Below are positions 4,430-22,873 of a stretch of 35,406 bases of DNA, in pieces (the stretch's first letter is position 1; each line of letters starts with the position of its first letter). Below the pieces are notes generated by a model that saw nothing but the letters and a program-made list of their open reading frames with translations, did no database searches and was not told where the DNA came from. Position numbers and translations under genes: made by a program. Origin of the DNA: Gemmatimonadota bacterium (GTDB lineage Bacteria; Gemmatimonadota; Gemmatimonadetes; Palauibacterales; KS3-K002); the NCBI GenBank assembly GCA_020344215.1, contig CP070815.1, forward strand, positions 2,817,894-2,853,299, written 5' to 3'.

Positions 4430-4435
4430 TAGTCT
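4430..4435 (+). promoter_or_regulatory. -10 element placed for a leaderless portal transcript
   Basis: TAGTCT is separated from ATG 4443 by only seven bases (GCGCGGC), so transcription would start at or next to the start codon. GAGG at 4426-4429 is 13 bases from the ATG, too far to act as a normal Shine-Dalgarno. No -35 is visible. The same arrangement recurs at 11514, 14833, 20078 and 22861. Confidence 0.5.
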
Positions 4436-4442
4436 GCGCGGC

Positions 4443-6218
4443 ATGGCCCTTCGCGACTTCCTCCGTTCCGCCGCCTCCGAGGCACTTGACGCCGCCATAG
4501 GCACTCGGCGCGAGCCTTCTTTTGACGCTCAGGTGCGTTTTGACGCCGCTCCGTCGGAGGCTCCGTCTACGGAGCCGACGTGGCGCGAGGCTCAGTCTCG
4601 GATGGACAGCCTTCTGAACACCGCGACCGGCATGGGCGTGGCGGCTCAGGACAAGGGTGCTTCGACATCGGTCGACGTGGCTCGCACGGCTTTGACGAAC
4701 CGTCAGCTTACGACGCTTCTGACTTTCAACGGTTACGTCGTCGACTACTTCGACAAGCTCGAAGACGTCGCGACGGGCTTTGGTTGGAGCTTGCAGGTCG
4801 ACAAGCAGAAGAGCGATGCGTTGCACGAGGACGAGGAGCGCTTGGACGTCTACAGCCGCGTCGGCGAGGCGTTCCGCAGCGGTCAGGAGTACGGCGGTTG
4901 CCTTTTGCTTCCGGTTATCGACGACGACGCGACGACGCCTGAGGATTTGCTTCGGCCATTGAACCCGGAGTCGGTGACGCGTGTTCACGCGTTGCACGTG
5001 TTTCATTGGGACGAGTTCATCCCGGTGGACTACGAGACGTCGATGTTGGACAACGGTTTTCGCGAGCCGAAGACGTGGCGTATCACGCCGAAGAACGCGG
5101 GTTGGATTCCGCCCGCGGACGAGTCGGGTTTCGGTCCATGGGAGACGACATCGCGAGGCTTCACGATCCACCACAGCCGTGTTTTGTATTTCCGCGGCAT
5201 GCGCAGCAAGCCGTACGAGCGCGCAGCGAACGGCGGTCGCGATCGTTCGGTGGTGCAGCACTTGTGGGACGCGTTGGTGGGCATCGGCGGCGTGGACGCA
5301 GGCGCCGCGACGATGGCTCAGGAGATGAATTACACGACCATCAAGGTCGCAGGTTTGGGACGCATGGAGGCGTCGAGCGCTTGGTCCACGATTTTGACTC
5401 GTTTCAAGATCATGGATTTGGGTCGAAGCCTCTACAACGCGCTTTTGATCGGCGAGGACGACGCTCACGAGCGTCACACGGCGAACGCTAGCGGTTATCG
5501 AGAGTTGAAGGACGGTGCGAAGAGCACATGGGCAAGCCACACGGGCATGCCGGAGACGCTTGCGTTCGGGGACACGCCTTCGGGTTTGAACACGGACGGC
5601 GAGGCATCGCGTCGGAATTGGGACCGTAAGGGTGTGGTGTTGCAGCGGAAGGTAGTGGGACCTCCGCTCAAGCGTTTGTATTTCGATTTCCTGATCCCCG
5701 CCCACGGTGGTGGCGAGACGGAAGCGTTGCGCGATGCGCGTCTTGTGTTCGAGCCGATCGGGACGCTTACGCGCAAGCAGCGTTCGGACATGGATCGTCA
5801 CGACGCGGAGACGGCGACGATGTTGGTCGAGCGCGGCGTGTTGTACCCGGACGAGATTCGCGAGGCGTACTACGGCAAGGACGGCAAGCGTCCGATCGGC
5901 CCGGTCGAGCCGCTTCGCGGCGGCGTCACGGGCGGTTTGAGCCCGACGACTTTGAAGTGGCTCGACAAGGTCGCGGCTTCGGGTTCGGACGGGGCGATCA
6001 AATCTGCGGAGATCGCCCTGGCGATGCTCAAGAGCGGCGAGGCGACGGACATTCCGACGGAGATCGAGCCGCCCGAAGTGCCTCCCGCATTGGCGGGCGC
6101 CGCTGGCATCCCCGGCGAGGACGAAGACATGACCGAAGACGGTCGTGAAGGCGCGAGCCCCGAGCGGCGAGCGGAGCGAAACCCCGTAGGGGTGCAGAAC
6201 GGAGGAGAGTCGGAATGA
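4443..6218 (+). CDS. Portal protein (DUF1073 type)
   Basis: This encodes 591 residues. The portal is the dodecameric ring at one capsid vertex through which DNA enters and leaves. The middle of the protein has the DUF1073 portal features: a helical start around 'LTTLLTFNGYVVDYFDKLEDVA', the wing strand pattern, HHSRVLYFRG near residue 245, and the helical clip/crown part with LGRSLYNALLIGEDD and GMPETLAFGDTPSGLNTDGE. The last 60 residues are acidic and Pro-rich and probably disordered. It follows terL, as expected, and overlaps the next gene by 4 bases (6215-6218). Its start lacks a Shine-Dalgarno and follows a -10 element closely, suggesting a leaderless message. Confidence 0.92.
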   Translation: MALRDFLRSAASEALDAAIGTRREPSFDAQVRFDAAPSEAPSTEPTWREAQSRMDSLLNTATGMGVAAQDKGASTSVDVARTALTNRQLTTLLTFNGYVVDYFDKLEDVATGFGWSLQVDKQKSDALHEDEERLDVYSRVGEAFRSGQEYGGCLLLPVIDDDATTPEDLLRPLNPESVTRVHALHVFHWDEFIPVDYETSMLDNGFREPKTWRITPKNAGWIPPADESGFGPWETTSRGFTIHHSRVLYFRGMRSKPYERAANGGRDRSVVQHLWDALVGIGGVDAGAATMAQEMNYTTIKVAGLGRMEASSAWSTILTRFKIMDLGRSLYNALLIGEDDAHERHTANASGYRELKDGAKSTWASHTGMPETLAFGDTPSGLNTDGEASRRNWDRKGVVLQRKVVGPPLKRLYFDFLIPAHGGGETEALRDARLVFEPIGTLTRKQRSDMDRHDAETATMLVERGVLYPDEIREAYYGKDGKRPIGPVEPLRGGVTGGLSPTTLKWLDKVAASGSDGAIKSAEIALAMLKSGEATDIPTEIEPPEVPPALAGAAGIPGEDEDMTEDGREGASPERRAERNPVGVQNGGESE

Positions 6219-7357
6219 CTCCGAAGACCCCCACAGAGAGCGCGGCGTGGCGTACGGATCGCTACATCGCGCTTCGCAAGCCTCGCAGCAACGGCGCCGG
6301 TGGCCTGATTTTGGACGCGTTCATCAGCAAGCCGGGCGTGCTGGTCTACAAGCGCGCCGACGGCAGCGAAGTACGCGAGTTGGTCACAGCCGAAACGCTG
6401 CACGAGACGATGTCGCTCGACAGCGCGCGTCTCGCTCCGGTGACGGTCGACCATCCGAACGACGGTGTGGTCACGGCACAGAATTACGAACAGCTTGCGG
6501 TCGGCATGGTCGGCGAGCGCATCGATATTGCCGAGGACGGTCGCGTTCGCATGACGCTGAACATCGCATCGGAGCGTGGAGTCAAGGCGATCGAAGGACG
6601 TCTCGACGGTCAGCGCCGCCGCGAAATCAGCGCGGGCTACTTCGTCAACATCGATGAAACGCCCGGAGTACATCCCGAATTCGGACAATACGACCGGATT
6701 CAGAAAGACCGTATGTACAATCACATCGCGCTAGTGCAAGCTGGGCGCGCCGGTCCGAGCGTCCACGTCCGAGCAGACGAGGCGCATCGGACGCTCGACG
6801 AAGGAGACGACGTGGACATCAAGGAACTCAAGGCCCGCCTCGAAGACGAGCAGAAGGCCCGGGAGACTCTTCAGGCTCGCCTCGACGCGATGGACGCCGA
6901 GAAGAGCGCGTCGATCAAGGCCGACTTCGACGCCATGGTCACTCGCATCGACGACCTCGAAGCCGCTTTGACCGACGCGTTGGCCGAGCCCTCCGACGAG
7001 GAGAAGGCCGAAGCCGCCAAGGTCGCCGCGCAGGCTCGCCAGGACGACCGCATCTTCCGCCGTCGCCTGGACTCGCTGCTTCCGATCGCGAAGATCGAGG
7101 CGGCCGATGCCGACAAGCTGGACACGGACGACCTCGTCGAGAAGCTGTTTGGCGCTCTCGACCTGACGCCCATCAAGCTCGACGGTGTGGATGAGGTGGC
7201 GAGCCGCAAGGCTGCGGTCGTTTTCCATCTCGACGCGAAGCCTTCGCGCCACCCTTACGAGATTGACGAGGCGTCTGTGGCTCGTCAGGACTCGACGGAC
7301 GCGCCCGAGCGCAACCTCGACTTCGCTTTCGACAACCTCGCGCCCGCCAAGGCGTAG
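6215..7357 (+). CDS. DUF2213-type prohead protease fused to a scaffold-like coiled coil
   Basis: This encodes 380 residues; ATG 6215 overlaps the portal stop and has GGAGGAGAG upstream. Residues 1-185 match the DUF2213 layout of phage prohead proteases: TVDHP (candidate catalytic His near residue 80) and REISAGYFV (candidate nucleophile Ser near 143), followed by KDRMYNHIALVQAGRAG. Residues about 200-265 form a strong charged coiled coil (DIKELKARLEDEQKARETLQ), the usual place of the internal scaffold that is cleaved away on maturation. The C-terminal 100 residues contain a second helical, acidic region. The gene lies between portal and capsid genes, as expected for a maturation protease and scaffold in one polypeptide. 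Confidence 0.85.
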   Translation: MTPKTPTESAAWRTDRYIALRKPRSNGAGGLILDAFISKPGVLVYKRADGSEVRELVTAETLHETMSLDSARLAPVTVDHPNDGVVTAQNYEQLAVGMVGERIDIAEDGRVRMTLNIASERGVKAIEGRLDGQRRREISAGYFVNIDETPGVHPEFGQYDRIQKDRMYNHIALVQAGRAGPSVHVRADEAHRTLDEGDDVDIKELKARLEDEQKARETLQARLDAMDAEKSASIKADFDAMVTRIDDLEAALTDALAEPSDEEKAEAAKVAAQARQDDRIFRRRLDSLLPIAKIEAADADKLDTDDLVEKLFGALDLTPIKLDGVDEVASRKAAVVFHLDAKPSRHPYEIDEASVARQDSTDAPERNLDFAFDNLAPAKA

Positions 7358-7405
7358 CCCCGAACCTTCCACCTTGCCCGTGCAACCGCGCGCTTCGAGG
7401 ACACC

Positions 7406-8599
7406 ATGAGCATTCTCCAGAACGACATTTTCGACCGCCTCCCCGAAGGCCACATTGGTGAGGTCGCCACGGGCTACCCCTCCTTCCGTCTGAGCGGCGT
7501 GTCGAGCGACGGGCAGGTGAAGCAGGTTTCGACCATCACGGTCACTGCGAACGCCGTGGCTAACTACGTCTTCTCGGTCGATGGTGTGGCTTACACCTGG
7601 GCCGAGCCGACCGCCACGAGCACCACGACCGTCGCGACGAACATCCGCGACTTCTGGAACGACACGCCCGCCCTCCGCGGCATCGGCGTGGCGACCAGCG
7701 CGGTCAACGTGGTGACGATCACGGGCGATTGGCCGGGAATCAGCTTCACGCTGACGGACGCCGACGCGAAGATCACCACGGCCACCCCCACCGCGGCTGC
7801 GAACGCCGGGACCGTCAACTTCGGTCGCGCCGTCTGCTCGCTCGGGTACCCCGCTTCGGCCGGGAACTTCGACCGCGGCGACACGCAGCAGATTTACGCC
7901 GAGGCCGGTGTGGGTCTGTTCACGGCTCAGATCGCGACGTGGACCGTGGCCGACCCGGGCACGGGCCAGTACATCGGCGCGGTCCTCCGCATCGTCGGCG
8001 TCGACCACGTCTTCCGGGCGCAGGTCCCCTGGAACACCGACCTCGACACGACCCTCGACGACCTCGCCACGGTCCTGAACGCGATGCTGACCGATGTCGG
8101 CGCCGACGCCTACGTGACGGTCGCGGGCCCGGCGGGTGTTCCCGGCGCGGGCGAGATCGCCTTCGCGGCCGCCATCGCGGGTGTCGAGTTCCACAGCCTC
8201 ATCACCTGTGACGACGCCGCGGGCTACCCCGCCATCACGGTCACCGACAACATCGCCGGGCCCGGCTCCGCCACCCCGACCAGCTTCTACCGCTGCTTCC
8301 GCGGCATCTCGGAGCGCTCGACGGATCAGGTTGTCGACGGTGACGCGGTCGCCTACTACCCCTCGAACCAGTCGGTCACGGTTGTGGCTCAGGGTGACAT
8401 GTGGGTCAGCGAAGATGGCGTCACGCTCGGTGGTCAGGTCTACGTCGACCTTTCCGCGGGCAACGAGGGTCTGTTCAACATCGCCGCTGGCGCCGACCGC
8501 CTCCCGCTGCCGCTCGACATGGCCGAGTGGTTGCGTGACAGCAACGACGTCCAGGGCGAAGACATCGCCAAGCTCCGTCTCAAGAAGGCCGTCGCCTAG
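7406..8599 (+). CDS. Cement/decoration-like head protein with two inserted beta domains
   Basis: This encodes 397 residues; ATG 7406 has CGAGGAC upstream. The start (MSILQNDIFDRLPEGHIGEV) and the last 110 residues (VTVVAQGDMWVSEDG, VYVDLSAGNEGLFN, EDIAKLRL) resemble the beta-rich capsid cement proteins made just before the capsid protein in many phages. Between them lie two Thr/Val/Ala-rich segments. Residues about 30-140 (TITVTANAVANYVFSVDGVA ... VVTITGDWPGISFTLT) and about 170-285 (WTVADPGTGQYIGAVLRIVG ... YVTVAGPAG) share one pattern: strands, then a helix of the type 'ttvatnIrdfw/ldDLatvLNamL', then strands. They look like copies of one domain often found in phage virion proteins. The likely role is stabilising the capsid exterior; the assignment is by position and pattern. 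Confidence 0.7.
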   Translation: MSILQNDIFDRLPEGHIGEVATGYPSFRLSGVSSDGQVKQVSTITVTANAVANYVFSVDGVAYTWAEPTATSTTTVATNIRDFWNDTPALRGIGVATSAVNVVTITGDWPGISFTLTDADAKITTATPTAAANAGTVNFGRAVCSLGYPASAGNFDRGDTQQIYAEAGVGLFTAQIATWTVADPGTGQYIGAVLRIVGVDHVFRAQVPWNTDLDTTLDDLATVLNAMLTDVGADAYVTVAGPAGVPGAGEIAFAAAIAGVEFHSLITCDDAAGYPAITVTDNIAGPGSATPTSFYRCFRGISERSTDQVVDGDAVAYYPSNQSVTVVAQGDMWVSEDGVTLGGQVYVDLSAGNEGLFNIAAGADRLPLPLDMAEWLRDSNDVQGEDIAKLRLKKAVA

Positions 8600-8652
8600 A
8601 CGGCGCCGATATCAACCACGACCCCGCAACCCCGGGACCTGAGGAACACACC

Positions 8653-10706: not shown

Positions 10707-10964
10707 ATGTCCGATAAGTACGAGCACAAGGTGGTTCGCATCCGCAAGCGCGCGGGCGAAGAGGCTTTCCGAGCCGAATTGGAGAAGCAGGGCGAGGACG
10801 GCTGGCAGGTTTGCCACTCCGAGTTGGCGGGACGCGATCGTGTCGCTTACATGCAGCGAATGAAGGCCGAGCCCAAGAAGGCCAAGGCGCCCGCCAAGAA
10901 GGCGCCTGCCAAGAAGGCTCCCGCCAAGAAGAAGGCCGCGCCCAAGAAGTCGAAGGACGACTAG
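10707..10964 (+). CDS. Small protein: DUF4177-like head plus Lys/Ala/Pro histone-like tail
   Basis: This encodes 85 residues; ATG 10707 has AAGGAGAAGAC upstream. Residues 1-50 (YEHKVVRIRKRAGEEAFRAE, then EGWQ-like GEDGWQVCHSEL) resemble the small DUF4177 fold, in which a helix ending 'lnelGeeGWe' packs on strands. Residues 52-85 are almost only Lys, Ala and Pro, built from three direct 15-base repeats encoding APAKK, and end in SKDD. Such H1-like tails bind nucleic acid non-specifically. The gene sits among neck genes, so a DNA-contacting or RNA-binding role is possible, but the family has no defined biochemical function. Confidence 0.65.
   Translation: MSDKYEHKVVRIRKRAGEEAFRAELEKQGEDGWQVCHSELAGRDRVAYMQRMKAEPKKAKAPAKKAPAKKAPAKKKAAPKKSKDD
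10887..10931 (+). repeat. Three 15-base coding repeats (APAKK units)
   Basis: The units GCGCCCGCCAAGAAG (10887-10901), GCGCCTGCCAAGAAG (10902-10916) and GCTCCCGCCAAGAAG (10917-10931) are tandem and in frame inside the Lys/Ala-rich tail. Such repeats can expand or contract by slippage, changing tail length without breaking the frame. Confidence 0.85.
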
Positions 10965-11525: not shown

Positions 11526-11897
11526 GTGATCTTCTCCGACACCCTGGTCCACCGTACTTACGGCGTCGCGACCGCCAACGCGCTGGGAGGCGACGACCTG
11601 CCAGCGCCGACGGTCGGCAGCATTCGTGCGTCCGTGCAGCGCCCGAGCAACGCCGAGGTCATGCGGTTCAAAGACCAGTACGTCGGCAAGCGCACTGACG
11701 ACTTGTGGCTCGTAGATACCTACAGCGCTCTGAAGACGGTCGACGAGCCCGGCGGTCGCCCGGCGGATCAAGTCGACATCGTCGACCCGAACGGCGTCAC
11801 GCGCGCTTACGAGGTTGTGGCGGTGCAGCACGTCCGAGCCGTGATCGTCCATTACGAAGCGCTTGTGGCTCGCATCGCTGAAGGTAAGCAACCGTGA
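11526..11897 (+). CDS. Putative head-tail joining (neck) protein
   Basis: This encodes 123 residues from GTG 11526. It is not a clear family member. The predicted strands (SIRASVQRPSNAEVMRF, DLWLVDTYSALKTV, DQVDIVDPNGVTRAYEVVAV) and their spacing resemble small beta-barrel neck proteins. Its position between a gp10-like tail-completion gene and a neck terminator gene is where such proteins occur. The gene overlaps its successor by 4 bases (GTGA at 11894-11897). The start lacks a Shine-Dalgarno but sits 6 bases after a -10 element. Confidence 0.6.
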   Translation: MIFSDTLVHRTYGVATANALGGDDLPAPTVGSIRASVQRPSNAEVMRFKDQYVGKRTDDLWLVDTYSALKTVDEPGGRPADQVDIVDPNGVTRAYEVVAVQHVRAVIVHYEALVARIAEGKQP

Positions 11898-14110: not shown

Positions 14111-14638
14111 ATGGCTCCCACGAATATCAGCGCGTCGAGCGCTGCCCCCATCAAGTTCACGCTTTCTGACGCTTCTGGCGTCGAGCACCACTACGAGGCG
14201 ACGTACCATCGTGCGTCGGAGGGCTTCCCTCTCGCCGCGCAGTGGTTGACGGGCGTGCTCGAACCGCTGGCGTCTTTGCTGGGCATCGAGATCAAGGATC
14301 TCAAGATTGGTGCCGAGGTCGACTTCAGCTTGGCCGCGAACATCAGCGCGGGTGCGGGCGCTCAGGCTCTCAGGACCATCCTGACGGATTCTGCGACCTT
14401 CCCGCTGCTTCGGGCCACCCTGGCGAATACGCGCCGCGACGGAGCGGCCCTGTCCTCCGAGGCAGTGTTCGACGTGGTGTACCGGGCGAACTACTCCGAG
14501 TTCCTTCAGGCGGCTCGGATTGTGGCGGAGGCCAACGATTTTTTCGGGCCTGCCGCTGGTTGGATCGCTATCGCAAGGCAGAAGTTGACCGAAGCGATGC
14601 AGGATCCGACCGATTCGAGCGGCGTCGCAGACGCGTAG
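14111..14638 (+). CDS. Tail assembly chaperone, short (G-like) form
   Basis: This encodes 175 residues; ATG 14111 follows TAGGAGCAACAGCCCC. It lies between the tube and tape measure genes, the universal position of the chaperone that loads tube subunits on the tape measure. The N-terminal part is beta-rich (IKFTLSDASGVEHHYEATYH). The rest is helical (AQWLTGVLEPLASLLGIEIK, FLQAARIVAEANDFFGPAA). A second frame that opens at -1 overlaps its end and holds the expected C-terminal extension; the slippery heptamer is at 14539. The short form is not expected to enter the finished virion. Confidence 0.85.
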   Translation: MAPTNISASSAAPIKFTLSDASGVEHHYEATYHRASEGFPLAAQWLTGVLEPLASLLGIEIKDLKIGAEVDFSLAANISAGAGAQALRTILTDSATFPLLRATLANTRRDGAALSSEAVFDVVYRANYSEFLQAARIVAEANDFFGPAAGWIAIARQKLTEAMQDPTDSSGVADA

Positions 14639-14835
14639 CAGCGCAACTCGAAGAGGATCTTGCGATCCCTGAGTTTTTCTACCTGCTGGCCTTCGCGTCC
14701 GAGACTAAGGCCCCGGTCGAAGACCATATAAAGCGCCCGTTCGTGTATGTCCTTGGCGATCTCATAATGCTTCGGGCCCGCGCCGACATGCGTCAGATAG
14801 ACGAAGACGAGCGCGAGTCGAAGAGCAGCAGGTAG
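14111..14835 (+). CDS. Tail assembly chaperone, long (GT-like) form made by -1 frameshift
   Basis: A -1 slip on T TTT TTC (14539-14545) joins residues 1-145 of the short form to 96 codons in the other frame (14545-14832, stop TAG 14833-14835), giving 241 residues. The added part begins RACRWLDRYRKAEVDRSD. It contains LEEDLAIPEFFYLLAFASET and ends with the acidic, charged DMRQIDEDERESKSSR, as expected for the T domain that binds the tube protein. The downstream frame has no plausible independent start or Shine-Dalgarno near its unique part, but it has good codon use. The frameshift is inferred from the heptamer, the gene order and the family habit. Confidence 0.75.
14539..14545 (+). other. -1 ribosomal slippery site T_TTT_TTC
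   Basis: The frame of the chaperone reads GAT TTT TTC. Slipping back one base keeps TTT TTT paired with tRNA-Phe, so the heptamer fits X XXY YYZ exactly in phase. It is the only long T run in the gene. GC-rich sequence follows (GGGCCTGCCGCTGG), which could form a stimulatory structure. Confidence 0.75.
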
Positions 14836-14838
14836 AGT
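14833..14838 (+). promoter_or_regulatory. -10 element overlapping the chaperone stop, leaderless tape measure start
   Basis: TAGAGT begins with the TAG stop codon of the long chaperone frame and lies 6 bases (GCGGGC) before GTG 14845. No Shine-Dalgarno is visible at useful spacing. An alternative is translational re-initiation from the nearby stop, which would need no promoter. Confidence 0.45.
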
Positions 14839-14844: not shown

Positions 14845-16569
14845 GTGAGCGTCATTCGCCAGTTTACGATTCGCGTCAATTCGGACACCCGCGAGGCCGA
14901 GAAGGGTCTTGCGCGGATCAACATGAGCCTCAGAGGCTTGCGTAGGGCTATCGGCAACACCGCCAGTTTCTTCGCCAGGATGGTCACCGAAACGGCCAAC
15001 GTCGGTGACGCCGCCGCTGTTACAGCGTCTCAGTTGAGTATGCAGTCGCAGGCGTTCCAGCAGCTTTCGCACGTCGCTGATATCGCAGGCGTGCCGGTCG
15101 GCAGGTTTCAGGTGTTCCTGCGACGCATGGGCGACAACCTCGTAGACGCGAGAAAAGGCGCGGGCACGGCTGTTGACGCGTTGGAGTTGTTGTTCGGCGC
15201 CGTTGACAAGGCTCCGACGGACAACCTTGAGGCTTTTCTCTCTATTCACGAAAAGCTCTTCAAGAGGGCTAGAACGCCAGGAGGTTTTCAAGAGACACGA
15301 AGCCTCATGGCTCAAATCGGCGGTCGTGCGGGCGCTTTGAGCGCGCCGATTTTCGACATGTCTCCTGAAGCGCTACGAGAGCTTATGCAGGAGGCTAAGG
15401 ATCTCGGGCTGGTCCTAGACCCGGAGATCACTCAGGCGACGCAGAAGTTCAACGATGAGGTGCTTCGCCTACAAAAGTCTTTCCAGGGCGTCCGCAATGT
15501 CGTGGGCTCTCGGTTGCTGCCCGAGATAACCAAAGTCGTCAACGTCACACAGCGTTGGTCGCGCGAGAGTCGGTCGCTCATCAACTCGGCGTTGGAGCCG
15601 TGGCTTCGATCCATCGAGATCGGGGCCGAGTTCGTCGCCCATCTCATAGACCGGGCACGTAGGGCGTTCAACCAGTTCCTTCGGCCGCTAGAGAAAGTCT
15701 CGAAGGCTCTCGGCAAGTTCAGTGTTTTGCTTGGGGGTGCGGCGATAGCCGGGTCGGTTATCGGCAGCCTTACGGTGTTTATCGGCTCGCTCGTCGCGCT
15801 CGCCAAGGGCTTCACGCTCGTAAGAACGGCCTTCTTGTTCATGTGGCCGATCTTGAGTCCGATACTCGGCTGGGCCTTGCTCGCCGCGGGCGCGTTTACG
15901 GCGCTTTATCTCGTCATTGAGGACTTCATTACGTTCCTGCGAGGCGGCGGCAGCGTCTTGGGCGATTTCCTCGAAGATACGGGGCAGCTTGAGAACTTCA
16001 ACGAGTTCCTTGAGTCCATGAAGGGGCTGCTGGACTCCGTAAACGGTCTATTCGAGGAACTGAAGAAAAGCACTGACGGCTGGCTAGACGCCCTCAAAGA
16101 ACTCGTGGATTTTGTTACGACGTCCTTCCTCATCGACCCGTCGATGAAATTCGGCACCGAGGCTTACTGGCGAAACCTCAAGAACTCTGTTGGCGACATG
16201 GTCGGGGTTGAGCTTCAAAAAGGCACGAAAGCGGTAGCGGCGGGCAGGGCGGCTGTCGCCTTGTCAACAGCTTCTTTGGAGCGCAAACGACTCGATCGAG
16301 TGGCGAGAGAAAACCTGCCCCGTCAGGGCTTTACCTTCGGGGGGCGTCTAAGGCATCTCATGAACCACCCTCTAATGCAGCCTGTGCAGATTGGGAACCC
16401 GCGTGCCGGGCAAGCGGCGGGCGGCCGTATGCCGAGCACACCGGCCCCTGTGGGTGGCACGTTCATCGAGATCACCAACAACGGTGTCGACCCCATCGAT
16501 GCCACCCGAGATCAGCTAGATCAGGCGGCTCGTATGAGCGCTTCTTCAACCGTGAATGGGGAGAGGTGA
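14845..16569 (+). CDS. Tape measure protein
   Basis: This encodes 574 residues from GTG 14845. It sets tail length and is ejected ahead of the DNA. The protein is mostly helical: an N-terminal part with TIRVNSDTREAEKGLARINM and a long stretch with few Pro, then a hydrophobic block near residues 290-365 (GGAAIAGSVIGSLTVFIGSL, then AFLFMWPILSPILGWALLAA), then more charged helices. The C-terminal segment (GGTFIEITNNGVDPIDATRD) is typical of the end of phage tape measures. At about 0.15 nm per residue the tail would be near 86 nm. It follows the chaperone genes directly and precedes the Dit-like gene. Confidence 0.92.
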   Translation: MSVIRQFTIRVNSDTREAEKGLARINMSLRGLRRAIGNTASFFARMVTETANVGDAAAVTASQLSMQSQAFQQLSHVADIAGVPVGRFQVFLRRMGDNLVDARKGAGTAVDALELLFGAVDKAPTDNLEAFLSIHEKLFKRARTPGGFQETRSLMAQIGGRAGALSAPIFDMSPEALRELMQEAKDLGLVLDPEITQATQKFNDEVLRLQKSFQGVRNVVGSRLLPEITKVVNVTQRWSRESRSLINSALEPWLRSIEIGAEFVAHLIDRARRAFNQFLRPLEKVSKALGKFSVLLGGAAIAGSVIGSLTVFIGSLVALAKGFTLVRTAFLFMWPILSPILGWALLAAGAFTALYLVIEDFITFLRGGGSVLGDFLEDTGQLENFNEFLESMKGLLDSVNGLFEELKKSTDGWLDALKELVDFVTTSFLIDPSMKFGTEAYWRNLKNSVGDMVGVELQKGTKAVAAGRAAVALSTASLERKRLDRVARENLPRQGFTFGGRLRHLMNHPLMQPVQIGNPRAGQAAGGRMPSTPAPVGGTFIEITNNGVDPIDATRDQLDQAARMSASSTVNGER

Positions 16570-16572: not shown

Positions 16573-17169
16573 GTGGCGACGCTTCTCACTAGAGACAGCG
16601 ACGGCGAGTCCATCGTGCTCGACGTAGTTACGTCGTTCATTGTGTCGCCGTCGGCAACCGTCTCTCGGCACCCCATCGAGGAAGGCGCCGATATCGCGGA
16701 CCATCGTCACGTCGAGCAAGTGCAGATCAATCTGGTCTGTCGCGTCACGCCTAGCCCTCTCTCGACGGCTCAGGGCAGCGAGACGGGCGCCGCTCGCGTG
16801 CAGAAAGTGTGGGACTTCCTGAATACGGCGGGCCGCATCTCGCAACAGGACCGCGGGACAGTGACGCTGTCCAGCGACAGCGAGAAGATCGATACCTGGG
16901 AGAATCTTGTGCTGCTCCGCTGGCCTCGATCCGTTGGCTTGCTGAGCGGCGCAGAATTCCAGCTTATGTTCCGGCAGCTTGCCTTTGCGACCATCGAGCG
17001 AGTCAAGGCGCCGGATCGCGCGATTACGTCCTCAGGCTCGAACAAGGAGAAGGGCGAGAACGGCACCGACCCGGCGTCAGACGTAGACGACTCGACGCTC
17101 AAACAAGGGACTGAGAAAGCACGCGACGCCATTAAATTCGTCGGCGCACCCTTCAACCCTTTTTCTTAA
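16573..17169 (+). CDS. Dit-like baseplate/tail protein
   Basis: This encodes 198 residues from GTG 16573, with GAGAGG upstream. Residues 9-55 read DGESIVLDVVTSFIVSPSAT, then SRHPIEEGADIADHRH, a pattern shared with the N-terminal domain of Dit-like proteins of small-baseplate myoviruses ('HPVE.GadIsDHv'). The next part is a beta/helix hub (ARVQKVWDFLNTAG and the RWPRSVG strand). Residues 155-198 are hydrophilic and probably disordered (SGSNKEKGENGTDPASD). It most likely forms the ring joining tube and baseplate, next to the plug and hub proteins encoded downstream. Confidence 0.7.
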   Translation: MATLLTRDSDGESIVLDVVTSFIVSPSATVSRHPIEEGADIADHRHVEQVQINLVCRVTPSPLSTAQGSETGAARVQKVWDFLNTAGRISQQDRGTVTLSSDSEKIDTWENLVLLRWPRSVGLLSGAEFQLMFRQLAFATIERVKAPDRAITSSGSNKEKGENGTDPASDVDDSTLKQGTEKARDAIKFVGAPFNPFS

Positions 17170-17187
17170 TCGAAGCGGCGAATTGAT

Positions 17188-17553
17188 ATGCAGCGACTTC
17201 GTTTCTTCCCCGAGTTCGAGCGCCACTCGCAAGTCGTCGAGTTGGGCACGGGCGACGATGCGCGCGCGTTCAGCGTGATTTCCGAGTGGAGTCGCAAGGA
17301 GAGCGCGTGGTTTCTGTCTTTTTATGAGGCCGACGGCACTGCCCTCGCAGAGAACATTCGCGTATCGCCGGGGAATGTCATGATCCCCGACATGGACCGT
17401 CTTAGTGCCACGAAACCGAAGACGGCGTTCATCATAGCGCTCGGTCCCGAGCCCTACGATCGACTCGATCTCGGCGTGACAGTCAGAGTCTTTCACGCGC
17501 TTTATTCCGAGTTCCCCGAGGCGGCGGGAGACGGCACCGTCTTCTCGGTGTAG
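17188..17553 (+). CDS. Baseplate plug protein (Pam3 gp18-like)
   Basis: This encodes 121 residues; ATG 17188 has only a weak purine-rich upstream region. The protein is one small beta domain: RFFPEFERHSQVVELG, AWFLSFYEADGTALAENIRV, then VSPGNVMIPDMDR and a final FIIALGPEP...LGVTVRVFHALY. This 'W-x-L-x-x-x-(E)ADGT-x-L' arrangement fits the plug proteins of simple cyanophage-type baseplates (Pam3). The gene sits between Dit-like and hub genes, as in those phages. Confidence 0.6.
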   Translation: MQRLRFFPEFERHSQVVELGTGDDARAFSVISEWSRKESAWFLSFYEADGTALAENIRVSPGNVMIPDMDRLSATKPKTAFIIALGPEPYDRLDLGVTVRVFHALYSEFPEAAGDGTVFSV

Positions 17554-18399: not shown

Positions 18400-19037
18400 A
18401 GCACTACTCGGGCGGCTTGCGCGTCACGACCGAAGAGGTAATCGACGCTTCGATCAAGGGGCAGATCGCCGTACAGCACAACGTCGAGTTGGGCGTCGTG
18501 CAGGCGTTCACTGCCGCTGCGGCGGGCTCAGGCCCAACCGCGACGATCAAGCTCTCGACGAAGTTCCGACGGCTCGTAGACGGCGTGTTGGAGACTTACG
18601 CGCCGCCCACGCTCGGGAACGTGCCGGTGCTTTACAGCCGCCTCACGTTCCCGCTACAGGCTGGCGACGAAGTGCTTGTGCTCTTCGCCGATCGCGGCGT
18701 CGACACGGCATACATCAACGGCGGTACAGGCAACGAGCCCGACGGCACACGCCGCAACAGCCTCTCAGACGCCTTCTGCATTCCGTTCGCGTGGAGCAAG
18801 GCTTCGACGCAGTTGACGCACACGGCGTCGACCGTCGTCTTGAATCAAGGAGCGCAGACGTCGATCCACGTCGGCGACGGCGCGACCGCGGCAGCCGCAC
18901 GCGTAGGTGACGACGTCGCCGCTGCGGCTGCTTGGGCAACGTGGTTTGCTTCTGTGGGCACGGCTGTCGGCATCGCGCCCCCCGCGGGCGTTTTGGCTGC
19001 GATTTCGACTGGAAGCAGCCTCGTTAAGATCGAGTAG
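18396..19037 (+). CDS. Baseplate spike protein (gp138/gpV OB-fold type)
   Basis: This encodes 213 residues; the ATG overlaps the hub stop, with GAGGGG upstream. The N-terminal 110 residues form the OB-like domain of the gp138 family (GVVQAFTAAAAGSGPTATIK, YSRLTFPLQAGDEVLVLFAD, then a Gly/Asn-rich end). A Thr/Val/Gln-rich beta part follows (TQLTHTASTVVLNQGAQTSI), suitable for a beta-helical spike shaft. The last 45 residues are Ala/Gly-rich, with a helix (DDVAAAAAWATWFASVGTAV). No HxH iron-binding tip motif is seen. It pierces the outer cell layer when the sheath contracts. Confidence 0.82.
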   Translation: MKHYSGGLRVTTEEVIDASIKGQIAVQHNVELGVVQAFTAAAAGSGPTATIKLSTKFRRLVDGVLETYAPPTLGNVPVLYSRLTFPLQAGDEVLVLFADRGVDTAYINGGTGNEPDGTRRNSLSDAFCIPFAWSKASTQLTHTASTVVLNQGAQTSIHVGDGATAAAARVGDDVAAAAAWATWFASVGTAVGIAPPAGVLAAISTGSSLVKIE

Positions 19038-19049
19038 TGCTCTTCCGAC

Positions 19050-19058: not shown

Positions 19059-19088
19059 TCCGAAACCGCTAAGCCTTAGGAGCGCCCC

Positions 19089-19619
19089 GTGCCGAATCGC
19101 TTTCCCTTTGTAAACAGCCAAGGCGGCCAGCCGCTTGTTCGTTACCTCGACACGAACGGCGACGGCACCGGAACCAACAACGCTGTAGCCGACTACAGCG
19201 CCACCAGTGCCGAGTTTTTCATTCAGGCGCCTCCTGGCGAGTCGTTCATCATCCACCGGATGATCATCTCGATCGCGAACGGCAACATGCGACCGGACCA
19301 GTACGGTGGCTCGGGCGGCGCGCTGTCGAACGGCATCGCCGTTCGCATGCAGAGCAGTAGGGGAGTCCTAGACCTCCTCGACGGAGTGCCCCTCACGACG
19401 AACAGTGATTGGAACTACGTTGCTCACGACCGCCTTCTGGACGAGTACGGATCCGCGACCTCGCAAACGCTCACGGTACGCTGGACGTTTGCTCGGTTCG
19501 GCGGCCCGCTCGTCTTGAACGGCACGCGCGGCGACCAGTTGGTTGTTGAGTGCTCGGACGACTTGACGGGCTTGAGCACCCATCGCTTCATGATTCAAGG
19601 GTATCGAGTCGAGTTGTGA
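19089..19619 (+). CDS. Baseplate-region structural protein, unknown
   Basis: This encodes 176 residues from GTG 19089, with AGGAG 7 bases upstream. It is almost entirely beta-stranded, with no Cys-rich or enzymatic motif: NAVADYSATSAEFFIQAPPG, ESFIIHRMIISIANGN, LTVRWTFARFGGP, THRFMIQGYRVEL. It looks like a single beta-sandwich virion protein. The gene lies between spike and gp25-like wedge genes and overlaps the latter by 4 bases (19616-19619), so it is probably a baseplate or peripheral tail component. I do not recognise the family. Confidence 0.65.
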   Translation: MPNRFPFVNSQGGQPLVRYLDTNGDGTGTNNAVADYSATSAEFFIQAPPGESFIIHRMIISIANGNMRPDQYGGSGGALSNGIAVRMQSSRGVLDLLDGVPLTTNSDWNYVAHDRLLDEYGSATSQTLTVRWTFARFGGPLVLNGTRGDQLVVECSDDLTGLSTHRFMIQGYRVEL

Positions 19620-20056
19620 CCATCTACACCGCCGCAGAGCTTGTCGTAAACGACGGCATCGAGGACATCACGTACTACTCGGGCTTCCTGACGGGCCTCG
19701 ACGCGCTCCGAGTGCGTATCGGCCACCGTCTTGCGAGGTTCCGCGGCGAGTGGTTTGCAGACCGAAACATCGGCGCGCTGCGTATGCCCAGCGACGCCAA
19801 CAAGCCGTCGGCCGCGACGTACGCGACATGGCTCAGGAGCGATCTCGAAGCCTGCCCCGGCGTCGACCGCGTCTCGGTCTTGACCGTCAGCACCGACAAC
19901 GCCACAGGGCATCTGACGGCGTCAGGGACGATCCACGCCGAGCAGCAAAGCATCCCCGTCGCGATACGGCTGCCATCGTCGGTGTCGGGTATCGGCAACG
20001 TGCCGCCTTCGACGTCCGTCTTGTCCTCGACGTCCTCGCCTACCTGGGTCTTCTAG
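19616..20056 (+). CDS. Baseplate wedge protein, gp25/DUF2634-like
   Basis: This encodes 146 residues. GTG 19616 overlaps the previous stop (GTGA) and starts VTIYTAAELVVNDGIED; it is preferred over an upstream in-frame start that would overlap the preceding gene by 70 bases. The conserved middle ALRVRIGHRLARFRGEWFAD with NIGALRMP is typical of the gp25/DUF2634 wedge family, whose members start sheath assembly at the baseplate. The C-terminus is Ser/Pro-rich and probably flexible. The gene comes just before the baseplate J gene, the expected order. Confidence 0.8.
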   Translation: MTIYTAAELVVNDGIEDITYYSGFLTGLDALRVRIGHRLARFRGEWFADRNIGALRMPSDANKPSAATYATWLRSDLEACPGVDRVSVLTVSTDNATGHLTASGTIHAEQQSIPVAIRLPSSVSGIGNVPPSTSVLSSTSSPTWVF

Positions 20057-20074
20057 CCGCTGGCGCAGGCTTGC

Positions 20075-20083
20075 TGGTAGGCT
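20075..20083 (+). promoter_or_regulatory. Extended -10 element placed for a leaderless baseplate J transcript
   Basis: TGGTAGGCT matches TGnTAnnnT. Seven bases (GCCGAGC) separate it from ATG 20091. No Shine-Dalgarno is present. The hexamer and first discriminator bases (TAGGCTGCC) are identical to the element before the 22874 gene. Confidence 0.55.
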
Positions 20084-20090
20084 GCCGAGC

Positions 20091-21260
20091 ATGCCTCTCT
20101 CCGCCGCCGGTTATACGATCCAGACCGAAGACGAGACGTTTGAAGAACTCGTCTCGACTTTCGAGAACGAGACGAACACGACCGTCGATCGGAACCGTAC
20201 GGACGACCAGATCGTCGCAGCCATGTGCAAGGTGTTCGCGAACGTCTTGCGTAAGCGCGACGAAGAGCGTCTAGCCATCTACAACGCCGGGTCGATCAAC
20301 AACGCTACCGGGCTCCGACTCGAAGACCTCGTCAGCATCGTGGGCGTCGAGCCGAAAGGCGCGACGTATACGACCGACGGCGCTGCCGTCCCGACCGGCA
20401 CTTTCGGTACCGTCATTCCCGCTGGCGCGCTTGTCGAATACAACGACAACCGCTTCCGAGTGCTTGAAAACGTAGGCATCGGCGGCGGCAACACCGTCAA
20501 GCTACAAGCGTTGCAGGCAGGCGCCATCAACTTGCCGACCGGCACGGGCATGACGATCGTGACGCCCATCGCAGGCTGGGACACGATTACGTCCAGTGCG
20601 ACCAAGGTCGCCATCGGCCGAGCACGCGAGACGGACCAAGAGCTTCGCATTCGCCGCTCGCAGAGCCTTTCCGCCGCGGGCGCGGGCAGCACAGCGTCGA
20701 TCCAGGCAGGGTTGCTGTCCCTCGACTACGTGACAGCCGCCGTGGTGCTCGCGAACCAATCGTCCGCATCGGCAACGGTTCAGGGCATCACGATGAACGG
20801 CAACAGCCTTGCCATCTTCATCTGGCCCGCGCCTTCGGGCATGACCAGCGAGCGCCAGGAGGAGATCGGCGAGACGATCTGGCGCAGAAGCCCAGCCGCG
20901 ACCGAATACGACCCGCCCAGCGAAGACGTCACGGTGACGGTCACGGACAGCGGTGGAGGCGTGCAGACGGTCAAGTTCGACGACGCCGTCACCGACCCCA
21001 TCACGGTGACGATCAAGGTCTACCTTGCCGCCGGTTACAACCTCTCCGATGTCTCGACTCAAGTCGACACCGACATCACGGCGTACTTCAATCGCCTGAC
21101 GGTCGGGCAGCCCGTCTACATCATGGAGTTGTATTCGGTCATGGATGCGATCGAGGGTGTGACGGGCGCCGACTTCACGCTCGATGGAACACCCGACTCG
21201 AATTACGTGCCGAACGTCACGAACCTTGTGACCATCTCAGGAACGATCACCATCACATGA
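20091..21260 (+). CDS. Baseplate J-like wedge protein
   Basis: This encodes 389 residues. ATG 20091 has no Shine-Dalgarno but lies 7 bases after an extended -10. The N-terminal helices (ETFEELVSTFENETNTTVDR) and the conserved middle match baseplate J/gp47: IVGVEPKGATYTT, GTVIPAGALVEYNDNRFRV, ALQAGAINLPTGTGMT, then DQELRIRRSQSLSAAGAGST, DYVTAAVVLANQ, and a C-terminal ferredoxin-like part ending VTNLVTISGTITIT. It forms the arms of the baseplate ring with the next wedge protein. It overlaps a 61-codon gene by 4 bases (21257-21260). Confidence 0.92.
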   Translation: MPLSAAGYTIQTEDETFEELVSTFENETNTTVDRNRTDDQIVAAMCKVFANVLRKRDEERLAIYNAGSINNATGLRLEDLVSIVGVEPKGATYTTDGAAVPTGTFGTVIPAGALVEYNDNRFRVLENVGIGGGNTVKLQALQAGAINLPTGTGMTIVTPIAGWDTITSSATKVAIGRARETDQELRIRRSQSLSAAGAGSTASIQAGLLSLDYVTAAVVLANQSSASATVQGITMNGNSLAIFIWPAPSGMTSERQEEIGETIWRRSPAATEYDPPSEDVTVTVTDSGGGVQTVKFDDAVTDPITVTIKVYLAAGYNLSDVSTQVDTDITAYFNRLTVGQPVYIMELYSVMDAIEGVTGADFTLDGTPDSNYVPNVTNLVTISGTITIT

Positions 21261-21442
21261 CGCCCTGCCCCGCCATTGACGACTCCTCTTCGCAGCACGC
21301 CGTCGCCCTCGATTACTGCATGGGCGGCAACGAGCACATCGAAGTAGTTGTGGACGCCTACGGCATCGTGATCGTCGGCTACTTCATTGGCGACGCACCC
21401 TACGAGACGGTCATGCTCGCGTTCAACGTCGCGGAGGCGTAG
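21257..21442 (+). CDS. Small protein between wedge genes, unknown
   Basis: This encodes 61 residues. ATG 21257 overlaps the baseplate J stop (ATGA), and its own TAG ends directly before ATG 21443, so it is closely nested in the operon. The sequence has two short acidic and hydrophobic strand-like stretches (HIEVVVDAYGIVIVGYFIGD, then VMLAFNVAEA), with Cys at residues 4 and 21. The tight coupling suggests a real gene. No function can be given; a small baseplate accessory or chaperone role is possible. Confidence 0.6.
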   Translation: MTPCPAIDDSSSQHAVALDYCMGGNEHIEVVVDAYGIVIVGYFIGDAPYETVMLAFNVAEA

Positions 21443-22075
21443 ATGGCTCTTCCTCCATACACGCTCGGGCTCGGGACTGAAGTCAACGCGCCCGACCCCA
21501 CAAGCCGCGACATCGTCTTCCTGCACGACGCGTCTGTGGTCGAGGACGGTCTTGCGCTCATGCCATCGGCGCTGCGAGCGAAGCCGAACGTCATGGCACT
21601 CATGCGTTCGGCGCTGCAATCGGCGCAGACGCGAGCCGACGAGAATTTCAACCTGTACATAATGGGCGCCATCGACATGGCCGAGGGCGACATGCTCGAC
21701 CAGTGGGGCTCCATCGTTGGCGAGCCGCGCGGGCAGTTTTACAACGACGAAGAGTACCGACCCTTCGTCAAGGCCCGCGCGTTGGCGAACAGCAACGACG
21801 GCACGGTCGACGAATTGCTGAACATTTTTGGCCTCGTCACGGCACCCATGGTCTGTGTCGAGTACATCCTGCTTCCGCCGGGGGGCATGCAGCTTCAGGT
21901 TTTCCGGCAGAGTTGGATGAGCGATTACAAGCGAGGTCGCGTGCGCCGCATCATGGCCGACGCTTGTCCCGGGCCTCGACTCCATCTGCTTGTGGAGTCG
22001 ATGGTGGGTAGTTTCGGACCGCCTCGCGACGACAGTAAAACCTTGCCCGGCGGCCCGCTTCCGCGATTCATCTAA
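21443..22075 (+). CDS. Tail/baseplate wedge protein, DUF2612-like
   Basis: This encodes 210 residues; ATG 21443 has GCGGAGGCG upstream. The region FNLYIMGAIDMAEGDMLDQW, then GSIVGEPRGQFYNDEEYRPF and VKARALANSNDGTVDELLNI, is the hallmark of the DUF2612 / tail protein I-like wedge family ('G..LD.lG.ivg..R....D..YR'). The C-terminus is Gly/Pro-rich. These proteins link the baseplate J arm to the tail fibers, and the next gene has a fiber-type N-terminus. Confidence 0.82.
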   Translation: MALPPYTLGLGTEVNAPDPTSRDIVFLHDASVVEDGLALMPSALRAKPNVMALMRSALQSAQTRADENFNLYIMGAIDMAEGDMLDQWGSIVGEPRGQFYNDEEYRPFVKARALANSNDGTVDELLNIFGLVTAPMVCVEYILLPPGGMQLQVFRQSWMSDYKRGRVRRIMADACPGPRLHLLVESMVGSFGPPRDDSKTLPGGPLPRFI

Positions 22076-22093
22076 TAATGCGTCTTCTCACGC

Positions 22094-22099
22094 TACTCT
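22094..22099 (+). promoter_or_regulatory. Possible -10 element before the fiber-like gene
   Basis: TACTCT fits TAnnnT, lies in the 65 bases between the DUF2612-like stop and ATG 22141, and would give a leader of about 35 bases. There is no TG extension and no -35, so this is weak. Confidence 0.3.
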
Positions 22100-22140
22100 G
22101 TGTCTTGGCGCTGTCCTGCACGCCTATCTACGAGGACATC

Positions 22141-22815
22141 ATGGCTCGACCAAGTGCTTATCCCGACCACGACACGTCCAACAGCAACTCTGTTGCCACC
22201 GCGGCACAGATCCAGGCGAACGGCTGGCCCGAGCGCGCCCAGGTGCCGAACACAAGCTGGAACTGGCTGCATCAGCTTGCAGGCAAGTGGCTTCGCTATT
22301 TCGGCGACAGCACTCAGTGGGTCGCTTCGCAACAAAGCGGCACCGGCACGGTCGGGGTTGAGGATGTCGAAGATTCATTTGTCGTCGCTGCGGGCGAGTT
22401 CAACGGGCGTGTTTGCCTCGATGTCAGAGGATCTATCGCCGTTTTGAATAACGGCGACGCCTCCGACCTAACCGTGCGTTTGCGGTTCGGTCGAACAGCA
22501 GATGCCCTTGGTTCGCGAGAGATTGTGGGCTCGTGGACGTTCACGGCCCCAACCGTGGGTACGTTCATCGACTTCAAAACGGTGATTAACACCAACAACG
22601 CTGAGACGTTGCTGTACTACTCGACGACCGCTCTTTTCGGTCCTTCCGGCAGCCCGGCGGTGTACCAAAAAGGCACCGGATGGAGTGCCGTGGCGATGGT
22701 TATGAGCGACGAGACGAGCTTGTCGTTCACTTTCGAGTGGGATAGCGGAGCCGATATCAACCACGGTCACGCAGTCGTGGCGGGCCGCGCGTTCCTTAGC
22801 GAAGAGCCTCCGTAA
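22141..22815 (+). CDS. Tail fiber/adhesin-like protein
   Basis: This encodes 224 residues. ATG 22141 has CGAGGACATC upstream, the same start context as the cement gene. An in-frame ATG at 22078 would add 21 residues without any Shine-Dalgarno. The N-terminal 55 residues (SAYPDHDTSNSNSVATAAQI, NGWPERAQVPNTSWNWLHQL, AGKW) follow a pattern common at the base of phage tail fibers and appendages ('GW..n..P...NWL....g.W'). The rest (SFVVAAGEFNGRVCLDVRGS onwards) reads as a beta-sandwich with many Ser, Thr and Gly, a likely receptor-binding head. It is probably attached through the DUF2612-like wedge protein. Confidence 0.65.
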   Translation: MARPSAYPDHDTSNSNSVATAAQIQANGWPERAQVPNTSWNWLHQLAGKWLRYFGDSTQWVASQQSGTGTVGVEDVEDSFVVAAGEFNGRVCLDVRGSIAVLNNGDASDLTVRLRFGRTADALGSREIVGSWTFTAPTVGTFIDFKTVINTNNAETLLYYSTTALFGPSGSPAVYQKGTGWSAVAMVMSDETSLSFTFEWDSGADINHGHAVVAGRAFLSEEPP

Positions 22816-22857
22816 ATCAGGGAGGCGCACAAGCGCTAGTCCTGCTCCCCAACCACC

Positions 22858-22866
22858 TGATAGGCT
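22858..22866 (+). promoter_or_regulatory. Extended -10 element placed for a leaderless adhesin transcript
   Basis: TGATAGGCT matches TGnTAnnnT, and seven bases (GCCCCGC) separate it from ATG 22874. No Shine-Dalgarno lies at useful distance; GGGAGG at 22820-22825 is about 50 bases away. The element shares TAGGCTGCC with 20078-20086. Confidence 0.55.
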
Positions 22867-22873
22867 GCCCCGC

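What the first reader, a model, noticed from the sequence alone, without database searches (positions are those of the whole stretch)
4430..22873. Family of -10 elements positioned for leaderless transcripts at five late genes
At portal (TAGTCT 4430), neck (TAGAGT 11514), tape measure (TAGAGT 14833), baseplate J (TAGGCT 20078) and the 22874 gene (TAGGCT 22861) a TAnnnT hexamer ends 6-7 bases before the start codon, with a GC-rich discriminator, no Shine-Dalgarno and no -35. Two share TAGGCTGCC and an extended TGn. Transcription would begin at the start codon. Most other genes in the window have clear Shine-Dalgarno sequences, so these five stand out and could set the dose of key structural proteins separately.
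Basis: partly seen in the sequence, partly recalled or inferred. Interest (0 to 1): 0.7.

Follow-up and report, generated by a model that had tools for sequence, protein, structure and literature searches.

The report
Phage genes switched on without leaders
In a tailed-phage contig filed with an uncultured bacterium's genome, a promoter-like DNA box sits 6 or 7 bases before the start codon of seven genes, six of them in the particle-building region, so these messages likely begin right at the start codon with no ribosome-binding leader, and a distant phage relative shows the same layout at eleven genes.

Summary
All five hexamers are where stated; terL (TAGCGT, 2135) and a minus-strand HTH regulator (TAGGGT, 33535) share the arrangement. 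Of 41 curated starts, 7 have TANNNT at gap 6-7 and none at gaps 0-5 or 8-18; 5000 shuffles averaged 0.5, maximum 5. In the late region a core Shine-Dalgarno is present in 0 of 6 box genes and 20 of 25 others. A distant relative (TerL 46%) has the box at 11 of 18 listed late starts, four at the same genes (portal, neck protein, tape measure, baseplate J), 8 of 11 being TAC/TAT. Across 18 boxes G at -14 is kept (17/18), no -35 is. Deinococcus and Thermus plasmids show the signal; among annotated lambda genes only cI does. So these are most likely -35-less promoters for leaderless mRNAs. The window is one contig between 100-N joints in a Gemmatimonadota bin whose chromosome shows no excess: host and integration are unproven. 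No transcript was measured; separate dose setting is untested.

The parts
2135..2140 (+).
2147..4312 (+). terminase large subunit (terL), box gene
   Evidence: PHROG phrog_38 E 3e-47; start agrees with P0007 and P0009
4430..4435 (+). TAGTCT box, 7 bases before portal ATG
4443..6218 (+). portal protein, box gene; start supported by two homologues; a database gene call of this same contig starts 53 codons later
   Evidence: PHROG phrog_146; A6 alignment with P0127, P0128, P0129
11514..11519 (+). TAGAGT box, 6 bases before GTG 11526
11526..11897 (+). minor head / neck protein, box gene; first residue aligns to the relative's
   Evidence: PHROG phrog_4185 E 7.5e-5; A5
14833..14838 (+). TAGAGT box, 6 bases before tape measure GTG; its TAG is also the stop of ORF 14242-14835
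14845..16569 (+). tape measure protein, box gene
   Evidence: PHROG phrog_8125; start agrees with P0002 (A4)
20078..20083 (+). TAGGCT box with TGG before it, 7 bases before ATG
20091..21260 (+). baseplate wedge (J-like), box gene; first residue aligns to the relative's
   Evidence: PHROG phrog_6; A3
22861..22866 (+). TAGGCT box with TGA before it, 7 bases before ATG
22874..23815 (+). 313-aa protein without a family match, box gene
   Evidence: no PHROG at E 0.001, no Pfam at E 0.01
33530..33535 (-). TAGGGT box, 6 bases before the HTH gene; lies inside the 3' end of the upstream helicase-like gene 35388-33520(-)
33278..33523 (-). 81-aa HTH_3 (Cro/C1-type) regulator, box gene; laid out like lambda cI
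   Evidence: Pfam PF01381 E 1.9e-13; PHROG regulators; lambda cI control

Best explanation
Seven genes of this phage contig, six of them in the late (particle) region, carry a TAGNNT box ending 6 or 7 bases before the start codon, and each box is likely the -10 element of a -35-less promoter whose transcript would begin at or one base before the start codon, so that the gene would be translated from a leaderless mRNA. SHOWN: box positions, their excess over chance, absence of a core Shine-Dalgarno at the late box genes, start codons backed by homologues for five of the seven (not 22874 and the HTH gene), G at -14 in 17 of 18 boxes of two phages, no -35, and the same layout at the same genes in a distant relative. 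INFERRED: that a primary-type sigma factor of the host reads the box through T-12, A-11, T-7 and G-14; that the 5' end falls on the start codon; that ribosomes start there without an SD. In the window several box genes head tightly packed gene groups (portal-protease, neck-terminator, tape measure-16573, J-21257-21443-22078), so each box would restart transcription of a small unit whose later genes use Shine-Dalgarno sequences or coupling. The HTH gene would be a leaderless regulator as in lambda cI.
For: Excess: 7 of 41 curated starts at gap 6-7, none at gaps 0-5/8-18, Poisson P 7.6e-8, shuffle maximum 5 in 5000. Relative R (IMGVR_UViG_3300025687_000177, 33,023 bp; TerL 46%, portal 35% identity): 11 of 18 listed late starts, P 2.7e-19, plus terL at gap 8; shared with the window at portal, 11526, tape measure and J. 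Exclusion: core SD at spacing 4-11 in 0 of 17 late box genes and 26 of 32 others in the two phages, Fisher 1.6e-8. 18 boxes: T-12, A-11, T-7 by definition; G-14 17/18, C or G at -8 18/18, no -35 information. In R 8 of 11 boxes are TAC/TAT, which excludes a stop-codon explanation. Starts backed by homologues: portal, 11526 (78), J (76), tape measure (77), terL (46, 106). Controls by the same count on annotated genes: D. deserti plasmid 1 10/31, T. thermophilus pTT27 7/47, first 50 kb of phage phiYS40 13/59; lambda 1/63, which is cI. In D. radiodurans the same motif at 6-7 bp was shown by mutation to be a promoter, not an RBS (PMC12340547, Results part 1 of 3 read). TerL homologue P0008 begins MRGVCYGLG-M, which back-translates to TGY-TAYGGN-N6-ATG, a box if that Gly codon is GGT.
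Against: No RNA data. With fully blind ORF choice the signal is weaker: window 5 of 39 ORFs, P 0.0015; R 4 of 34, P 0.0003. R starts were listed after the hits were seen, although 6 of the 11 (portal, 17188, hub, 18396, W, 21443) are the first start of their ORF; three matched R genes with unclear starts (capsid, neck1, 22078) were left out of the 18, and the upstream bases printed for them show no box. Three box genes have a nominal SD match of 4-5 bases at spacing 11-12. The 14833 box overlaps a stop codon; the 33535 box lies in coding sequence. The bin's own chromosome shows no excess, so if that bacterium is the host, leaderless late genes would be unusual for it. T-15 is kept in only 6 of 18, so these are not full TGn promoters. 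Thermus phage P23-45, a known extended -10 phage, has 0/37 in its late arm. A more distant syntenic phage, G405, has only two candidates and fragment L148 none.
Confidence: 0.82

Rival explanations
1. The hexamers are promoters, but the layout is simply the norm of the phage's real host, a leaderless-rich bacterium (Deinococcota or Actinomycetota type), and the contig was binned with a Gemmatimonadota by mistake.
For: The contig is bounded by 100-N joints on both sides; TerL search of 395 sampled Gemmatimonadota genomes found, besides the contig itself, five with partial distant matches; the portal was found in the bin alone of 100 genomes; the bin chromosome shows no gap 6-7 excess in 760 kb (17 of 670 ORFs, gap 6+7 = 17 against 12.1 expected, P 0.11); three loci with TerL matches in other Gemmatimonadota genomes gave 0 of 17, 18 and 15 ORFs in the blind test (two isolated gap-7 matches); Deinococcus and Thermus plasmids do show it.
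Against: No positive link to any other host was found. Tetranucleotide fit does not decide: mean r 0.74 to the bin, 0.57 to the Deinococcus plasmid, 0.20 to the Thermus plasmid, while twelve single loci, among them Alphaproteobacteria, Acidobacteria and one Gemmatimonadota, reach 0.82-0.87. Compatible with the main explanation; it changes only the host.
Confidence: 0.5
2. The boxes are a phage-specific translation-start or binding motif (like the Start-Associated Sequences of Cluster K mycobacteriophages), not promoters.
For: They are tightly tied to start codons and repeat across genes.
Against: The kept letters are T-12, A-11, T-7 plus G-14, as in a -10 element; the SAS motif (GGGATAGGAGCCC, PMC3203893 passages) contains an SD and is not seen in these upstream stretches; the same motif in D. 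radiodurans is a promoter.
Confidence: 0.1
3. Chance plus upstream stop codons: TAG of the previous gene falls near the next start in a packed genome.
For: All seven window boxes start with TAG and one (14833) is a stop codon of ORF 14242-14835.
Against: The other late boxes are not stops of the preceding gene; R uses TAC/TAT in 8 of 11; shuffle and gap controls.
Confidence: 0.03
4. The boxes are read by a phage-encoded sigma or by host RNA polymerase remodelled by a phage factor that removes -35 contact (P23-45 gp39 or T4 AsiA type), making them a late-phase promoter class.
For: No -35, G-14 kept; six of seven in the late region; gp39-type factors spare -35-less promoters (PMC7403470 passages).
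Against: No sigma factor or RNA polymerase gene among the window proteins searched (not every ORF was searched); one box serves the HTH gene on the other strand.
Confidence: 0.2

Closest known systems
-10-motif adjacent to ORFs of Deinococcus-Thermus (Zhong et al. 2025, PMC12340547; Zheng et al. 2011, PMC3160421)
   Same: TANNNT about 6-7 bp before the ORF in place of an RBS motif; T1, A2 and T6 nearly invariant.
   Different: There it marks nearly a third of the genes of a cellular genome; here it marks a minority of genes of a phage, mainly in the particle region, with G kept at -14, in a contig binned with a bacterium whose chromosome shows no excess.
Leaderless phage repressor mRNAs: lambda cI, PY54 cI and cro (PMC4488713, passages)
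   Same: The HTH gene 33523(-) has TAGGGT-N6-ATG; lambda cI has TAGATT-N6-ATG and is the only hit among 63 annotated lambda starts.
   Different: Repressor role and lysogeny are not shown here; the late genes have no counterpart in lambda.
Predicted leaderless SigA promoters of Cluster O mycobacteriophages (PMC4351075, passages)
   Different: Three such promoters (PL1, PR2, PL2) are named; they are not spread over many structural genes of one strand.
Thermus phages P23-45 (extended -10 middle and late promoters, gp39) and phiYS40
   Same: -35-less promoters for phage genes; phiYS40 (first 50 kb) shows the same gap-6/7 excess (13 of 59).
   Different: P23-45 late arm shows 0 of 37 boxes next to start codons. 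That phiYS40 transcripts were mapped as leaderless is recalled, not read.

Membership tests
Deinococcus-type -10-adjacent leaderless genes | TANNNT with first T, second A, last T, 6-7 bp before the start codon, in excess of chance | tested here: met
   7 of 41 starts; same count on controls
Deinococcus-type -10-adjacent leaderless genes | No Shine-Dalgarno at these genes | tested here: met
   core SD in 0 of 6 late box genes against 20 of 25 others
Deinococcus-type -10-adjacent leaderless genes | Transcript 5' end on the start codon | not testable with these tools
   no RNA data
Deinococcus-type -10-adjacent leaderless genes | Wide use in the cell's own genome | tested here: not met
   bin chromosome, 38 x 20 kb, no excess; whether this is the host is unknown
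Extended -10 (TGn) sigma70-type promoters | T-15 G-14 before the hexamer | tested here: inconclusive
   G-14 in 17 of 18, T-15 in 6 of 18
Extended -10 (TGn) sigma70-type promoters | No -35 element | tested here: met
   no information around -35 in 18 aligned boxes; activity without it not testable here
Cluster K Start-Associated Sequences | 13-bp GGGATAGGAGCCC with SD upstream of starts | tested here: not met
   not present in the 45 bases upstream of the 7 window boxes printed
Lambda-type leaderless repressor gene | HTH regulator with a -10 ending 6 bases before ATG | tested here: met
Lambda-type leaderless repressor gene | Acts as immunity repressor of a temperate phage | not testable with these tools
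   no integrase among the proteins searched; contig ends not joined to host DNA

The most novel reading that the evidence does not exclude
A lineage of tailed phages has replaced the single late operon by scattered -35-less promoters that each start a leaderless message at a virion gene, in a host that itself depends on Shine-Dalgarno starts; orthologous virion genes swap between the two start modes, so the phage runs two parallel translation channels and can keep making particles when leadered translation or -35 promoters are shut down.
Probability: 0.22. Interest if true: 0.75.

Novelty: new variant of a known kind. Interest (0 to 1): 0.58.

Why it matters
The leaderless phage genes that I could read about are repressor and cro genes and a few predicted mycobacteriophage promoters. 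Here the layout is spread over the particle genes, excludes Shine-Dalgarno gene by gene, and recurs in a relative at about 32-63% protein identity while the set of genes that carry it changes. That makes SD-to-leaderless switching directly comparable between orthologues. It also has practical effects: a database gene call of this same contig starts the portal gene 53 codons late (538 aa instead of 591), and the layout may serve as a clue to host for unassigned phage contigs.

Tried and rejected
Stop-codon coupling: rejected, because R uses TAC and TAT boxes. General habit of the bin's bacterium: an apparent gap-7 excess in 360 kb (27 against a mean of 14.9) follows a three-base codon rhythm that Alphaproteobacteria and Acidobacteria loci also show; with 760 kb there is no excess. 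Prophage reading: dropped, since both flanks are 100-N joints. G404 (the record of L132, 51 kb, GC 68%): five gap 6/7 matches on its + strand before long frames looked promising, but the blind ORF test gave 0 of 48, so it is not counted. G405, a partly syntenic phage (14 window proteins matched in order, portal on the opposite strand, tape measure not matched), has only two candidates: the head protease start 3349 and a start at 18542/18554 (blind test 2 of 21, P 0.02). L148 and L150, distant fragments: none. In a coarse count of TerL relatives L119-L134 and of L138-L144 only L124 and L132 stood slightly out. Blind controls: D. deserti 7 of 38, pTT27 6 of 47, phiYS40 17 of 51 (all P below 0.001), lambda 2 of 51 (P 0.67), P23-45 4 of 57 and 0 of 29. 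Host search by DNA: of 60 genomes 31 had some match at E 0.01, but apart from the window itself all were under 100 bases, many of them to one stretch at window 10,860-10,950. No tRNA. Scans with J and the tube protein (two 22-residue matches) gave no usable relative.
Full report
WHAT THE WINDOW IS. The window is G000:C1:2817894-2853299 of a 4.74 Mb one-contig assembly. It is bounded on each side by exactly 100 N (L002:19901-20000 and L003:1-100); runs of 100 N also occur in other stretches of that assembly, so the window is one whole 35,406-bp contig put into a bin, not a shown prophage. The bin's RpoB is closest to a Gemmatimonadota MAG at 68%. The contig carries a contractile-tail phage module on the + strand: terL, portal, head protease, capsid, neck, tail terminator, sheath, tape measure, hub and baseplate genes, and on the - strand a methyltransferase, DNA polymerase, an HTH_3 regulator and a helicase-like protein. 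No integrase was seen among the proteins searched; not every ORF was searched. A database protein 96% identical to its TerL carries a name in the format of the Tara ocean set.

THE OBSERVATION. All five hexamers are present as described. Scanning both strands adds terL (TAGCGT-N6-ATG) and the HTH gene (TAGGGT-N6-ATG).

IS IT CHANCE. The + strand has only 59 TANNNT. Among its 853 ATG/GTG triplets, gap 6 and 7 hold 4 and 3 cases, the other gaps from 0 to 24 hold 0-4; 6 of the 7 are the gene starts above. At 41 curated starts the counts are 4 at gap 6, 3 at gap 7, none at gaps 0-5 and 8-18; Poisson P 7.6e-8; 5000 dinucleotide shuffles gave a mean of 0.50 and a maximum of 5. Two minus-strand entries (one of them my guess for the methyltransferase) were dropped there because they were not start codons, and the helicase start at the contig edge was not entered. 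A fully blind ORF set, which in GC-rich DNA includes shadow ORFs, still gives 5 of 39 ORFs, P 0.0015.

SHINE-DALGARNO EXCLUSION. In the late region, a core SD (GGAG, GAGG, AGGA or AAGG at spacing 4-11) is found in 0 of 6 box genes and 20 of 25 others; in R in 0 of 11 and 6 of 7; pooled Fisher 1.6e-8. With a looser rule (any 4 bases of the anti-SD complement in the upstream 20), 3 of 7 box genes and 30 of 34 others match, P 0.018.

THE RELATIVE. One IMG/VR record, R (TerL 46%; 33,023 bp, GC 68.5%), matches 21 of 36 window proteins in the same order. It has 43 TANNNT on its + strand. Eleven lie at gap 6 or 7 before late genes: portal, protease, 10301-like, 11526-like, tape measure, 17188-like, hub, 18396-like, W, J and 21443-like; terL has one at gap 8. 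The count of 11 of 18 leaves out three matched genes with unclear starts (capsid, neck1, 22078-like), whose printed upstream bases show no box. Portal, 11526, tape measure and J are shared with the window. The protease, 10301, 18396 and 21443 orthologues use an SD in the window and a box in R; 17188, hub and W have neither in the window. So orthologues swap start mode. Eight of the 11 R boxes are TAC or TAT, so a stop codon is not what is kept. Among the 18 boxes of the two phages (7 window, 11 R; R terL left out), G at -14 is kept in 17, C or G at -8 in 18, T at -15 in 6, and nothing stands out around -35. In the blind ORF test R gives 4 of 34, P 0.0003.

START CODONS. Portal: homologues P0128 and P0129 begin MALKD and MALRD against MALRD here, while the database call for this contig (P0127) starts 53 residues later. 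11526 and J align to R from the first residue, and the tape measure start agrees with P0002, R being 8 residues longer. TerL agrees with P0007 and P0009. The starts of 22874 and of the HTH gene were not tested by homologues.

CONTROLS. The same count on annotated genes gives D. deserti plasmid 1 10 of 31 (P 2.8e-10), T. thermophilus pTT27 7 of 47 (P 3e-7), the first 50 kb of phiYS40 13 of 59 (P 7e-5), lambda 1 of 63, and that one is cI (TAGATT-N6-ATG), the known leaderless gene; P23-45 0 of 37 in the late arm and 3 of 76 in the left arm. The bin's chromosome, 38 stretches of 20 kb, gives 17 of 670 ORFs, gap 6+7 = 17 against 12.1 expected (P 0.11), and the narrower motif shows no peak. Three loci with TerL matches in other Gemmatimonadota genomes give 0 of 17, 18 and 15 ORFs, with two isolated gap-7 matches in a looser listing. 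So the signal is a phage trait relative to the bin, and looks like that of leaderless-rich bacteria.

HOW IT LIKELY WORKS. The kept letters are the main sigma-contact letters of a -10 element plus G-14, which can stand in for a -35 (established knowledge of sigma contacts; recalled). The distance puts +1 on the first base of the start codon at gap 6 and on it or one base before at gap 7. In D. radiodurans the same motif at the same distance was shown by mutation and RNA measurement to be a promoter and not an RBS (PMC12340547, Results part 1 of 3 read). In the window several box genes are followed by genes packed at -4 to +3 bases (portal-protease, 11526-terminator, tape measure-16573, J-21257-21443-22078), so each box would head a small unit whose later genes use SDs or coupling. 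Initiation on the start codon itself and ribosome behaviour are inferred. The HTH gene resembles lambda cI in layout; PY54 cI and cro are further leaderless examples proven by RACE (PMC4488713 passages).

WHAT SPEAKS AGAINST. No RNA evidence; one box overlaps a stop codon and one lies in the helicase coding sequence; T-15 is not kept; R starts were listed with the hits in view; the blind tests are weaker than the curated ones; a more distant partly syntenic phage, G405, has at most two such genes and fragments L148 and L150 none, so the trait is confined to part of this phage group.

LITERATURE. Searches for TANNNT with leaderless (20 of 35 listed), Gemmatimonadetes or Gemmatimonas with leaderless (3 and 0 papers), Thermus phage leaderless and phage late, structural or mapped leaderless transcripts (the last 25 of 183 listed) showed, among the papers listed, none whose title or abstract start reports leaderless promoters spread over phage structural genes; the library is open papers only. 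Zheng et al. (PMC3160421 passages) report leaderless genes in 207 of 953 bacterial genomes, above 20% of genes in Actinobacteria and Deinococcus-Thermus; the string Gemmatimona does not occur in the held text. PMC10783764 (passages) gives Gemmatimonadetes an anti-SD of UCACCUCCU. Cluster O mycobacteriophages have predicted leaderless promoters, one within the structural operon (PMC4351075 passages). P23-45 gp39 was seen only through a review (PMC7403470 passages). A phage paper notes in passing that phage transcripts are often leaderless (PMC5312081 passages), so the phenomenon as such is not new.

VERDICT. It is a known mechanism in an unusual, distributed setting.

Noticed in passing
window 1-35406; L002:19901-20000; L003:1-100: The window is a stand-alone contig between two 100-N joints of a Gemmatimonadota bin; phage-host linkage and integration are unproven.
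   Followed up: yes
window 1937-2119: Four copies of a 27-bp AT-rich repeat (three of them in a 33-bp spacing, CATAAAAACAAGCACAAAAGC type) just upstream of terL; possible regulator, origin or packaging sites.
   Followed up: no
window 14111-14835: Two overlapping frames (14111-14638 and 14242-14835) before the tape measure gene, the usual place of a tail-assembly chaperone frameshift pair; neither has a PHROG match.
   Followed up: no
window 4443 and P0127: A database gene call for this contig starts the portal gene 53 codons late; leaderless starts may be missed where no SD exists.
   Followed up: yes
L137+L136 (R) 16860-17312(-), 24431-24895(-), 26629-27102(-): Small minus-strand ORFs with SD-like sequences lie before three box genes of R (11526-like, 17188-like, 18396-like), as if the box restarts late transcription after an inserted antisense gene.
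   Followed up: partly
window 547-577: TTGACA and TAGACT 19 bases apart before the SD-led ORF at 622: a more usual promoter layout in the small-gene region left of terL.
   Followed up: no
P0008 residues 1-10: The annotated N-terminus MRGVCYGLG-M of a 78% TerL homologue back-translates to TGY-TAYGGN-N6-ATG, possibly a hidden box read as protein.
   Followed up: partly
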